From contig NZ_CANNEZ010000001.1 in assembly GCF_947503795.1 (NCBI RefSeq), positions 921,001-985,000 of the forward strand: DNA of 64,000 bases. Direction: 5' to 3'. The DNA comes from an uncultured Jannaschia sp. GTDB lineage: Bacteria > Pseudomonadota > Alphaproteobacteria > Rhodobacterales > Rhodobacteraceae. The notes beneath the pieces were generated by a model. It was not told the origin of the DNA. It made no database searches and was given only the letters and a program-made list of their open reading frames with translations. Numbering within the stretch: the stretch's first letter is position 1; every line of letters begins with the position of its first letter. Shown piece by piece: positions 581 through 7,621 of this stretch. The position numbers were made by a program, and so were the translations under genes.

Positions 581-1189
581 TCAAAGACCCCCCACCGCGC
601 GCAGCGTGGCGACGATCGCGTCGACCCCCTCGCCATGCCGCAGCCGGGCGAACACCACCGGGCGGTCGCCGCGCATGCGGGCGGCGTCGCGGGCCATCAC
701 GTCGAGGGACGCGCCGACATGGGGGGCGAGGTCGGTCTTGTTGATGACGAGAAGATCCGAGCGGGTGATCGCGGGTCCGCCCTTTCGCGGGATTTCCTCG
801 CCCGCGGCGACATCGATCACGTAGATGGTGACGTCCGCCAGCTCGGGACTGAACGTGGCCGAGAGGTTGTCGCCACCGCTTTCGATCAGCACGACGTCGA
901 GATCGGCGTGGCGGCCACGCATCTCGGCCACGGCGGCGAGGTTGATCGACGCATCCTCGCGGATCGCGGTATGCGGGCAACCGCCCGTCTCGACACCGAT
1001 GATCCGGTCGCGCGGCAGGATCTGCATCCGCATCAGCGCCTCGGCATCCTCCTGCGTGTAGATGTCGTTGGTGATGACGCCGACCGAATGGGTGTCGCGC
1101 AGTGCCTCGGCCAGCCGCGCGGTCAGCGTGGTCTTGCCGGCGCCAACGGGGCCGCCGATGCCGACGCGGAGGGGGCCGTGATCGCTCAT
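581..1189 (-). CDS. ureG: Urease accessory GTPase UreG
   Basis: UreG is the SIMIBI-class GTPase that, with UreD, UreF and UreE, delivers nickel to apo-urease in the cytoplasm. The 202-aa product has the P-loop GGPVGAGKT (residues 12-20), the nickel-binding CPH motif (71-73, in [11 protein letters not shown]), and a G4-type NKTD in [11 protein letters not shown]. Length is normal for the family, without the His-rich N-terminal extension seen in some UreG proteins. Its ATG overlaps the stop of the upstream decarboxylase-like gene by 4 nt, so translation is probably coupled. It is the last gene of the urease operon before the element border. Confidence 0.97.
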
Positions 1190-1563
1190 GCGTCCTCCTC
1201 CGCGAAGACCTCGAGTGCTGCGTTCAACCCGTTGATCGCCGCGGGCAGGCCGCCATAGAGGCTCATCTGCCAGATCGTCTCGGCGATCTCCTCGCGGCTG
1301 AGGCCCGCGCGGCGTCCGGCGGCGATGTTGACCTTGAGCTGCGGCCTGGTCTGTCCACCGAGGGCCGTCAGCGCGGCGATGGTGGCGATGAACCGGTCGC
1401 GCAGGGGCAATCCGGGCCGGGCGTATTGGCGCCCATAGGCGAAGTCGACGACGCCCTCGGCCATCCCCGGCAGAAGGTGGCCGTAGCGCGCGTCGAGCGC
1501 GGCCTCCATGCCGGGGTTCAGGGTCTCGGAGAGGGCGCGCCCGGTCTCGGTGCTGTCGGTCAT
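1186..1563 (-). CDS. Carboxymuconolactone decarboxylase family protein in urease operon
   Basis: The 125-aa product is a single all-alpha CMD/AhpD-fold domain, with [12 protein letters not shown] near the N-terminus and the family signature around [18 protein letters not shown] and [17 protein letters not shown]. It lacks the CxxC of AhpD peroxidase-type members, so it is closer to the PcaC-like branch. The substrate is unknown. It is locked into the operon by 4-nt overlaps with ureF upstream and ureG downstream, which indicates co-translation. A role in urease maturation is not established, and the position may simply reflect regulon sharing. A second CMD-fold gene (4384-4791) lies in the same operon. 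Confidence 0.88.
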
Positions 1564-2216
1564 GTGCGGCAGATCCTCGGGGCCAGCGTTTCGTGGCGCA
1601 TGGATGCGATGTCGGAGAGGAAGGCCGTGCTGCGCAAGGCGGCGAGGTCGCCCTCGGCGGTCTCGGTCGCGATGCGCGCGCAGGCGGGCGCCAGGTCGCG
1701 AAGGATGCGCTGGCCGTCGGTCTGGCCCAGCGGGATCAGGCGCATCCCCACGGCGGCGAGGTTGCCCACGAACGCCTGGAGCGCCATCTGCGCCGCAAGA
1801 AGCGGGGGCAGGGCGGCCAGCCGCGTCGCCCGCCCGAGCGCCACCGGATAGGTCAGCCCCCCGAGGTCGCCGGGCCAGAGGGCGGCGGTGATCTCGCAGA
1901 AGGCGGCACCCATCAGCTCGGTCTCGCGCAGGCGTTCGACGCTGGCCGCGAAGGCGCGGGCAGTGGAGTCAATGCGGGGGATGTTGGCGGCGTCGGCGTG
2001 GTGGGCGGCGGCCAGAAACGTCGCATCCGCGCGCCCGGCGCCGTGGTCGAGCACGTCGGCCGCCCAGTCCGTCAGCCCTGCCGCATCGGTCACGCGACCC
2101 TCCGCGATGGCCGCTTCCAGCCCGTGGGAATAGGCGAAGGCCCCGACCGGGTAGGCGGGCGAGAGCCATTGCGTCAGGGTAAGGATCTCAGTGGCTGTGG
2201 CCATGGGTCCGTCCAT
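1560..2216 (-). CDS. ureF: Urease accessory protein UreF
   Basis: UreF bridges UreD-urease and UreG during nickel insertion. The 218-aa product has the typical start region [23 protein letters not shown], the alpha-helical body, and the conserved C-terminal tail ending [15 protein letters not shown] that contacts UreG in known complexes. Its 5' end overlaps ureE. ATG at 2216 gives [10 protein letters not shown]; an internal ATG at 2204 is an equally credible start. The stop overlaps the following CMD gene by 4 nt. Confidence 0.96.
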
Positions 2217-2637
2217 GCCCGTAGGCCCCGCCCTCGGGCGTGAAGGGCTCGATCACCTCGACCGCCTCGGCCCCGATCCGTGCCAGCATGTCGGCAATGA
2301 CGTGGTCGCGCTGGATCAGCAGGCGCTCCGGCTCGATCTGGCAGGGTGTGTGGCGGTTGCCGACATGCCACGCGATGCGGACCATGTCGGGCCCGGTGAC
2401 CGCGAGGAGCGGCTCGGGCGCGGCGGCGATTTCGACATGGCCGCCGCCAGACAGGACCAGCGCATCGCCATGGTTCAGCGATGTCGTGTGCGCCAGGTCC
2501 ACGAGGAGGCGCGCGCCGCCCTCGGTCGTCAGCACCTTCCGCCGCAGGAACCGGTCCTCGTAGGTCAGGACACAGCGATCCGTCGCACCGGTCCATGTCC
2601 CGGCCGCCGCGACCGCCTTTGCCGTCAGGTCGGCCAT
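2188..2637 (-). CDS. ureE: Urease accessory protein UreE (nickel metallochaperone)
   Basis: UreE binds nickel and hands it to the UreDFG-apourease complex. The 149-aa product has an N-terminal peptide-binding domain (TYEDRFLRRKVLTTEGG) and the metal-binding C-terminal domain with WHVGNRHTPCQIEPERLLIQRD. It ends in a short His-rich tail, [11 protein letters not shown], much shorter than in Klebsiella. Its ATG overlaps the ureC stop as TGATG, so translation is coupled. Similar frames run much further upstream through ureC, but those are out-of-phase shadows; the start at 2637 fits the family. Confidence 0.96.
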   Translation of the reverse strand: MADLTAKAVAAAGTWTGATDRCVLTYEDRFLRRKVLTTEGGARLLVDLAHTTSLNHGDALVLSGGGHVEIAAAPEPLLAVTGPDMVRIAWHVGNRHTPCQIEPERLLIQRDHVIADMLARIGAEAVEVIEPFTPEGGAYGHGRTHGHSH

Positions 2638-6413: not shown

Positions 6414-6423
6414 GGACGCCTCC

Positions 6424-6726
6424 TCAGCGGATCGGATCGTGGACGGTCACGAGCTTGGTGCCGTCGGGAAAGGTGGCCTCGACCTGCACGTCGTGGATCA
6501 TCTCGGGCACGCCCTCCATGCATTGCGCGCGGGTCACGACCTGCGCGCCCGCCTGCATCATGTCGGCCACCGAACGGCCATCCCGCGCGCCCTCGACCAC
6601 GGCCTCGGTGATCAGAGCGATGGCCTCGGGGTGGTTCAGCTTGACGCCGCGCGCGAGGCGCTTGCGCGCGACCTCGGCGGCCATCGCGACCAGCAGCTTG
6701 TCTTTCTCTCGGGGGGTCAGCTTCAT
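6424..6726 (-). CDS. ureA: Urease gamma subunit
   Basis: The 100-aa product is the complete gamma subunit: [20 protein letters not shown] at the N-terminus, [21 protein letters not shown], and the C-terminal [20 protein letters not shown]. It forms the trimer scaffold with UreB and UreC. Its ATG lies 1 nt after the ureD stop, and ureB follows in 10 nt, so ureDAB is one transcription-translation unit. Confidence 0.98.
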
Positions 6727-6727
6727 C

Positions 6728-7621
6728 TCAGATCATCCAGGGTCGGGGCAGGGGGGCGCCGGAGAGGCGGCGCAGGATCGGCATCAGGGCGGCGCGCAGG
6801 GCGAAGCCATCGGGGGCGAGGATCCGCGCCACGAGGAGGTCCGGCCCGATCAGGCTGGCCCCCGCCGTCGCGGGCAGCATCGCGCGAAGCGGCGCGAGAT
6901 GCGTCTCGGCCTCGGGCGCGACCACGACAATCAGCGCGATCGCCCGCGCGCCGCCCGCGATGTGAGGCCGGTCGAGATGGGCCTCGGCATCGCCGTCGAA
7001 GCCGGCCGCATCCAGAAAGAGCGGCACGCCATCCCGGTGGATGTCCACGCGGTCCCGAAACCGCAGGTCGGTCAGCGTCTCGCCCATGGCGCGTCGCCCG
7101 AAGATCAGCGGCTCGACGAAGAGGAGGCGCGCGTCGGCGTCGAGGTCGATCCGGGTGTCGCGTTCGAGGTTCGAGCCTTCGAAGAGGATGGTCTCCTGCG
7201 GCAGCCAGTCGAGCGCGCCCCCGCCCGCCACCGACAGCCGGTTGCGGATCCAGCCCGGCGCGCCCGGCTGCGCGCGGTAGGCACGCTCGGCGGCCTGTGT
7301 CGTCAGAACCAGCCGCGCGTCCTGCTCGACCGTTGCGTTCAGCGTGAAGCGGTCGCCGCCGGTCACTCCCCCGGCCGTGTTCACGATCACGGCCTGCTTG
7401 GTCTCGGGGGCGCTGCGCGGGAACATCACCTTCAGCGATCCGGCCTGCCGCAGGTCGCGCAGGCGCGTGACCGCCCCGTCGGTACGCACGGACAGCGCCA
7501 CGGAGCCCCGCGCGCGGGGCTGGGCCGCGGGCATGTCGAGAAGCTGTGTCAGGTCGTCGATGTCGGGCTCCCCCTGCCGTCCTCGGCGCAGTTTGGGACG
7601 CGCGGCGCGCGGCGTCTGCAT
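6728..7621 (-). CDS. ureD: Urease accessory protein UreD (UreH)
   Basis: UreD is the scaffold that binds apo-urease and recruits UreF and UreG. The 297-aa product shows the family core: [11 protein letters not shown], the [14 protein letters not shown] loop, QAAERAYRA, and [15 protein letters not shown]. The N-terminal 29 residues (basic, then acidic) are not typical, and ATG at 7534 ([10 protein letters not shown]) gives a more standard length; neither start has a convincing Shine-Dalgarno. It is the first urease gene, 84 nt downstream of the chloride channel gene in the same direction. Confidence 0.95.

What the first reader, a model, noticed from the sequence alone, without database searches (positions are those of the whole stretch)
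581..7621. Urease operon interrupted by four unrelated genes
ureDAB and ureC are separated by a Tat-exported metal-dependent cyclase, an LprI-like exported protein and an AhpD-like protein, and a second CMD protein sits between ureF and ureG. All are joined by 1-8 nt overlaps or short gaps with no terminators visible. Two exported or redox proteins co-translated with a cytoplasmic nickel enzyme is not the standard pattern, and suggests a wider amide/urea or stress module.
Basis: partly seen in the sequence, partly recalled or inferred. Interest (0 to 1): 0.55.

Follow-up and report, generated by a model that had tools for sequence, protein, structure and literature searches.

The report
Urease-operon inserts that outlive urease
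Four non-urease genes really do sit inside this bacterium's urease operon, and in many relatives such genes stay behind at the same spot after the urease genes around them have been lost, so they probably do a job of their own rather than help urease.

Summary
On the minus strand, ureD-A-B and ureC-E-F-G are split by a Tat-signal cyclase (cyc), an LprI-like protein and an AhpD-like CMD protein (cmd1). A PcaC-like CMD protein (cmd2) lies between ureF and ureG. The pattern recurs across the family: cyc lies inside a urease operon in 29 of 72 cyc-bearing genera.

The suggested urea/amide module is not supported. Carrying cyc does not go with carrying urease (60/72 versus 170/223, p=0.25). In 20 of 20 genomes of the window's genus the pyrC locus holds such inserts, but 9 lack every ure gene there (7 changes on the tree, 5-7 over bootstraps). 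The window's own genome is one of the nine: three inserts remain there. The window's UreC lies outside the genus's native clade, and its operon abuts integrase- and relaxase-like ORFs. Outside the genus, 23 further stand-alone cyc loci share at least two flanking genes with urease loci that carry cyc. cyc in such places is under purifying selection (dN/dS 0.03-0.12).

cyc is 76% identical to the solved cyclase-phosphotriesterase of Ruegeria pomeroyi. Best reading: independently useful genes ride in the urease transcript and outlast it. Substrates and transcription are untested.

The parts
6728..7621 (-). ureD, urease accessory protein
   Evidence: Pfam UreD 1.5e-49
6424..6726 (-). ureA, urease gamma subunit
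   Evidence: Pfam 5.7e-47; NCBIfam PRK13241 over cut-off
6075..6413 (-). ureB, urease beta subunit
   Evidence: Pfam 2.9e-44; NCBIfam PRK13203 over cut-off
5261..6082 (-). cyc: Tat-signal (MLSRRDLF) metal-dependent cyclase-family hydrolase, cyclase-phosphotriesterase type; overlaps ureB by 8 nt
   Evidence: Pfam PF04199 3.1e-39; model mean pLDDT 88; PDB 8f9x Z 37.8, 76% identity; Tat signal by inspection
4894..5256 (-). lprI-like protein with a signal-peptide-like start (DUF1311/LprI)
   Evidence: Pfam PF07007 1.1e-18
4839..4864 (-). 11-bp perfect inverted repeat with 4-nt loop in the lprI-cmd1 gap, no T-run; role unknown
   Evidence: sequence; fold (z -1.33); no terminator-like site
4384..4791 (-). 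cmd1: AhpD-like CMD protein with E-x11-C-x2-C-x3-H
   Evidence: Pfam CMD 1.1e-17; TIGR00778 over cut-off; PDB 2ouw 3.9e-54; motif in 129 of 131 hits
2637..4373 (-). ureC, urease alpha subunit
   Evidence: Pfam Urease_alpha 6.1e-52 and Amidohydro_1 7e-79; outside the genus-native UreC clade
2188..2637 (-). ureE, urease accessory protein (149 aa from the ATG that overlaps the ureC stop)
   Evidence: Pfam UreE_C 1.9e-26 (searched with one extra N-terminal codon)
1560..2216 (-). ureF, urease accessory protein
   Evidence: Pfam 3.1e-30
1186..1563 (-). cmd2: PcaC-like CMD protein without CxxC, overlapping ureF and ureG by 4 nt each
   Evidence: Pfam CMD 9.5e-15; TIGR02425 below cut-off; no CxxC in 12 of 12 hits, 11 distinct
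581..1189 (-). ureG, urease GTPase
   Evidence: TIGR00101 5.7e-93, over cut-off
1..436 (-). start of a 391-aa tyrosine-integrase-like ORF that runs off the window; relaxase-like and transposase-like ORFs follow (L275)
   Evidence: ORFs; named by inspection only, the family search that would have held it failed
7706..9439 (-). ClC-type chloride channel upstream of ureD (flank, not part of the operon)
   Evidence: NCBIfam PRK01862 3e-68, below its equivalog cut-off

Best explanation
The genes between ureB and ureC and between ureF and ureG are passengers of the urease transcript, not urease parts. They are independently selected envelope and redox genes. cyc is a Tat-exported, metal-dependent periplasmic hydrolase of the cyclase-phosphotriesterase type. 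Its frequent partner cmd1 is an AhpD-like CxxC redox protein. LprI and, in relatives, a phasin-like and a small membrane protein ride along. They share the urease operon's promoter and can travel with urease operons. When the native urease genes become dispensable, often with a second urease operon present elsewhere, the ure genes on either side are deleted and passengers stay in place as a small operon. Shown here: the gene order, its recurrence, the loci with inserts but no urease, purifying selection, and the foreign position of the window's UreC. Inferred: co-transcription, loss rather than gain, and the biochemical roles.
For: Recurrence: of 72 genera with a near full-length cyc of about 55% identity or more, 29 have it embedded with urease genes, 10 at a locus sharing at least two flanking genes with a urease locus, 30 elsewhere, 3 undetermined. 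Genus: 20 of 20 genomes have inserts at the pyrC locus; 11 have urease there and 9 do not. A four-protein flank tree needs 7 changes (bootstrap range 5-7; starred branches force at least 3). Own genome: next to pyrC lie the small membrane protein (68% to L125), the phasin-like protein (70% to L123) and lprI (48% to L116), and no ure gene was found there. Flanks: 27 of 62 stand-alone cyc loci share at least two flanking genes, same side and orientation, with a urease locus that carries cyc, against 1 of 20 control stretches (p=0.0009, related loci counted singly). One such locus keeps a 61-aa ureE remnant (L218). Selection: cyc dN/dS 0.030-0.116 in 7 pairs from urease-less loci, 0.039-0.192 in 8 embedded pairs. 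No link of cyc to urease presence: 60/72 versus 170/223 (p=0.25). The window's UreC lies outside the starred clade that holds 11 of 11 native-locus UreCs.
Against: No expression data; co-transcription is inferred from spacing, and the 102-nt lprI-cmd1 gap with a hairpin could separate units. Most flank matches are on the upstream side only (9 of 62 loci matched on both sides, 4 of these in the genus), and 30 of 62 share no flank with a sampled urease locus. If compact urease loci are allowed as partners, 3 of 20 controls also reach two flanks. In G306 and G310 only the pyrC-side flank was recognised. Tree counts cannot tell loss from gain, and recombination could restore urease at a locus. Only one clear ure remnant was found. 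cyc location is clustered on the cyc tree (22 changes against a shuffled mean of about 40), so much of the pattern is shared descent. The dN/dS pairs were chosen by hand.
Confidence: 0.7

Rival explanations
1. Functional module: the inserts help urease or belong to one urea/amide pathway, for example the cyclase hydrolysing exported amides or ureides to feed urease, or the CMD proteins protecting the nickel site.
For: Position inside the operon in many genera, tight spacing, cyclase-fold relatives that open a cyclic amide (isatin hydrolases Z 30.6-32.3) or cleave a formamide (kynurenine formamidases Z 23-24).
Against: Urease loci without them are the majority in the 40 sampled (30 of 40); inserts persist without urease; no association of cyc and ureC presence; nearest solved relative is named a phosphotriesterase.
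Confidence: 0.15
2. Selfish or neutral insertion: the gap between ureB and ureC is simply a tolerant landing site in a spread-prone operon, and the inserts give no benefit.
For: Content varies widely between genera (LprI, GFA, SRPBCC-type, HupE/UreJ, GNAT, phasin-like); an opposite-strand cytochrome c gene sits there in several; the window operon abuts an integrase-like ORF.
Against: cyc (18 pairs) and cmd1 (13 pairs) show dN/dS below 0.35 in every tested pair, with or without urease; the cyc-cmd1 pair recurs in order across genera and away from urease.
Confidence: 0.1
3. Reverse history: cyc-cmd1 and the other inserts were first, and urease genes were gained around them.
For: Stand-alone cyc loci are at least as common as embedded ones (30 elsewhere plus 10 flank-sharing versus 29); tree counts do not give direction.
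Against: In the genus the inserts lie in several separate slots (between A and B, B and C, F and G), so each gain would need several insertions that end in the same order; one locus without urease keeps a ureE remnant.
Confidence: 0.05

Closest known systems
Cyclase-phosphotriesterase of Ruegeria pomeroyi DSS-3 (PDB 8f9x)
   Same: 76% identity over the mature domain, Z 37.8, rmsd 1.0 over 230 residues
   Different: The fetched copies closest to 8f9x are stand-alone Ruegeria genes (93-94%), here it is inside a urease operon; activity of the window protein is untested. The paper that I recall as introducing this enzyme class (PNAS 2022) is not held
Isatin hydrolases (PDB 5nna, 4m8d, 4j0n, 5nmp)
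   Same: Same fold; 30-34% identity, Z 30.6-32.3
   Different: Well below the identity to 8f9x; substrate not inferable
AhpD-core protein PDB 2ouw (from Rhodospirillum, recalled)
   Same: cmd1 matches at 3.9e-54 over 132 residues
   Different: The entry's name as seen gives no tested function
Standard bacterial ureDABCEFG operon
   Same: All seven genes in that order
   Different: Four additional genes in two slots

Membership tests
Urease operon ureDABCEFG | All three structural and four accessory genes, same strand and order | tested here: met
Cyclase-phosphotriesterase (8f9x type) | High sequence and structural identity to the solved enzyme | tested here: met
   76% identity, Z 37.8 over 230 residues; phmmer 5.4e-120
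Cyclase-phosphotriesterase (8f9x type) | Hydrolysis of phosphotriesters | not testable with these tools
   no assay
Cyclase family PF04199 | Profile match over the curated cut-off and conserved HxGTHxDxPxH (motif recalled) | tested here: met
   134.9 bits, cut-off 23.1; H93, T96, H97, D99, P101, H103 invariant and G95 nearly so in 41 aligned sequences
Kynurenine formamidase KynB | TIGR03035 equivalog cut-off | tested here: not met
   58.5 bits against 223
AhpD-like peroxidase/CMD (cmd1) | CMD domain with E-x11-C-x2-C-x3-H (motif recalled) | tested here: met
   PF02627 64.3 bits; motif in 129 of 131 hits
AhpD subfamily TIGR00777 (cmd1) | Curated cut-off 191.95 bits | tested here: not met
   27.5 bits
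PcaC 4-carboxymuconolactone decarboxylase (cmd2) | TIGR02425 equivalog cut-off | tested here: not met
   52.8 bits against 155.7
LprI lysozyme inhibitor | PF07007 match | tested here: met
   68 bits, cut-off 22
LprI lysozyme inhibitor | Lysozyme inhibition | not testable with these tools
   no assay
PhaP6 phasin (insert in relatives and at the own-genome pyrC locus) | NF045536 cut-off 100 bits | tested here: not met
   31.9 bits

The most novel reading that the evidence does not exclude
In this family the urease operon is a composite locus. A set of exported and envelope genes (cyclase-phosphotriesterase with an AhpD partner, LprI, a phasin-like and a membrane protein) is the lasting occupant, and urease is the dispensable tenant that is deleted and replaced by foreign copies, so that 'urease operons' carry and spread a periplasmic organophosphate- or lactone-hydrolysing module.
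Probability: 0.3. Interest if true: 0.65.

Novelty: new variant of a known kind. Interest (0 to 1): 0.5.

Why it matters
Gene neighbourhood is widely used to guess function, and this looks like a clear case where genes held inside an operon across many genera do not serve that operon's enzyme. It gives ready-made natural comparisons: species of one genus with inserts at one locus, with and without urease there. It also ties an enzyme class solved as a phosphotriesterase to a definite genomic home, which helps the search for its natural substrate.

Tried and rejected
The first flank comparison treated control stretches more leniently than cyc loci and is superseded. An automatic label put one locus (L149) in the wrong class; corrected. 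One search used a wrong reading frame of the phasin-like gene and is not used; its one open point (G311) was checked in the right frame. and part of 70 also read that stretch in a shifted frame; one search has the right one. The idea that the window's cmd2 came from the genus's lost native operon was tested and not supported: cmd2 is as similar to another genus (L170, 92%) as to a congener (L115, 92%) and the tree does not place it. The structure search lists only what Foldseek ranked, so folds not listed are not excluded.

Literature: of ten searches, four returned nothing and none of the rows shown by the others was, by title and start of abstract, about inserts in urease operons of this family; the listings were cut at 15 rows of 88, 119, 22 and 44 papers. 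I saw listings and starts of abstracts only and read no paper.

Full report
What is there. The eleven genes lie on the minus strand between 581 and 7621 in the order ureD, ureA, ureB, cyc, lprI, cmd1, ureC, ureE, ureF, cmd2, ureG. Junctions are overlaps or short gaps except for 102 nt between lprI and cmd1, which hold a perfect 11-bp hairpin without a T-run.

How common it is. In one genome each for 295 genera of the window's family (unnamed here; relatives with names are Rhodobacteraceae and kin), PF00449 was found in 240 (234 over the cut-off) and a cyc relative at E up to 1e-20 in 112. I read by hand that 72 of these have a near full-length cyc of about 55% identity or more; the other 40 are weaker relatives or fragments. 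Of the 72, 29 have cyc embedded with urease genes, 10 sit at a locus that shares at least two flanking genes with a urease locus, 30 are elsewhere and 3 lie on contigs too short to tell. In 40 urease loci taken from the top of the UreC ranking without regard to inserts (some top matches were left out), cyc is present in 4, cmd1 in 5, lprI in 4, cmd2 in 1, any of them in 10; the ranking may disfavour UreCs like the window's, which score lower. Of 80 named loci kept from 336 cmd1 relatives, 33 hold ureC. So the arrangement is widespread but a minority pattern.

Inserts without urease. All 20 genomes searched in the window's genus have pyrC, and at 20 of 20 inserts lie beside it. Eleven have the urease operon there: L113-L120, L122, L123, L125. 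Nine do not: the own genome, G301, G304, G306, G307, G308, G310, G311, G312. They keep between one and four inserts: own genome membrane protein, phasin-like and lprI; G301 membrane protein and lprI; G304 and G306 phasin-like only; G310 phasin-like and lprI; G307 membrane protein, phasin-like, lprI and cyc; G308 phasin-like and cyc; G311 phasin-like and cyc; G312 phasin-like, cyc and an SRPBCC-type ORF. No ure gene was found at these loci by tblastn, apart from two weak ureG-like stretches that I do not count (for four of them, matches covering at least 35% of the query, for the other five). In G306 and G310 only the pyrC-side flank was recognised. A tree of four flanking proteins (pyrE from 19 and alr from 17 of the 20) needs 7 changes between the two states, 5-7 over bootstraps, at least 3 by starred branches alone. 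Six of the nine have urease elsewhere and three have none.

Beyond the genus. Of 62 distinct stand-alone cyc loci (69 before removing 7 duplicates; four are in the genus), 27 share at least two flanking genes, on the same side and in the same orientation, with a urease locus that carries cyc; 1 of 20 control stretches from the same genomes does (p=0.0009). With compact urease loci allowed as partners the counts are 27 of 62 and 3 of 20. Four of the 27 are in the window's genus, 23 outside. Nine of the 62 match on both sides, for example Paracoccus sp. S-4012 (L103) against L079; 30 share none. One locus, L218, keeps a 61-aa ureE remnant. On a cyc tree embedded and not-embedded copies alternate (22 changes, at least 7 forced by starred branches, shuffled mean about 40).

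Selection and independence. cyc dN/dS (Nei-Gojobori, my script) is 0.030-0.116 in seven pairs from urease-less loci with shared flanks, 0.039-0.192 in eight embedded pairs and 0.064-0.158 in three other stand-alone pairs; for cmd1 it is 0.052-0.153 in six urease-less pairs and 0.049-0.328 in seven embedded ones. Genera with cyc have urease in 60 of 72 cases, those without in 170 of 223 (p=0.25). For that count, genera without urease are the 55 handles missing from the table plus ten whose best PF00449 match is weaker than 1e-5; one embedded-cyc genus (G159) falls among the 55, its contig ending just past cyc and cmd1.

The window's own history. Its UreC lies outside the starred clade that holds the 11 native-locus UreCs of the genus and is nearest to one of another genus (L197, 91%). 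Its cyc is sister to that of G301, 85%, though the two UreCs are not sisters, so the operons look mosaic. Directly 3' of ureG lie integrase-like, relaxase-like and transposase-like ORFs (named by inspection). The simplest reading is that the native urease was lost, that inserts remained, and that a foreign operon with its own cyc, lprI and cmd1 is now used. In the two of the nine genomes whose other operon brings a cyc (own, G301) the native cyc is gone; in the other seven it is kept in four. This is too few to test.

What the inserts do. The AlphaFold model of cyc (mean pLDDT 88) matches the cyclase-phosphotriesterase of Ruegeria pomeroyi best (Z 37.8, 76%), then isatin hydrolases and kynurenine formamidases. 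The His/Asp motif is conserved in 41 aligned sequences. cmd1 keeps the AhpD-type motif in 129 of 131 hits. From these I infer a periplasmic metal-dependent ester, lactone or amide hydrolase with a cytoplasmic redox partner; the natural substrate is not known from this work.

One extra call (91) confirmed the phasin-like gene of G311 in the right frame and gave the cmd2 identities across genera.

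Noticed in passing
L275 9831-16437 (own genome, 3' of ureG; window 1-436): A 391-aa tyrosine-integrase-like, a 994-aa relaxase-like and an IS481-like transposase ORF abut the urease operon, suggesting an integrated mobilisable element (names by inspection).
   Followed up: partly
5261-6082 and relatives: The cyc signal peptide begins MCxxCVxxxVKxxMLSRRxxF; a CxxC ahead of the Tat motif is found in 118 of 134 cyc ORFs (duplicates included), unusual for a signal peptide n-region (recalled).
   Followed up: no
4839-4864: Perfect 11-bp GC-rich hairpin in the lprI-cmd1 gap, without a T-run.
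   Followed up: partly
L047, L063, L067, L071, L132, L134, L142, L160, L216, L222: A cytochrome c gene on the opposite strand sits between ureB or the inserts and ureC, so ureCEFG there probably needs its own promoter.
   Followed up: no
1186-1563 and L046, L170, L042, L115: cmd2 is 85-92% identical to copies of three other genera in the same ureF-ureG slot while the neighbouring ureF is only 42-53% identical, pointing to slow evolution or exchange.
   Followed up: partly
L126 (G304): A very divergent urease cluster in the order ureA-B-C-F-D-G in a congener whose pyrC locus has no urease.
   Followed up: no
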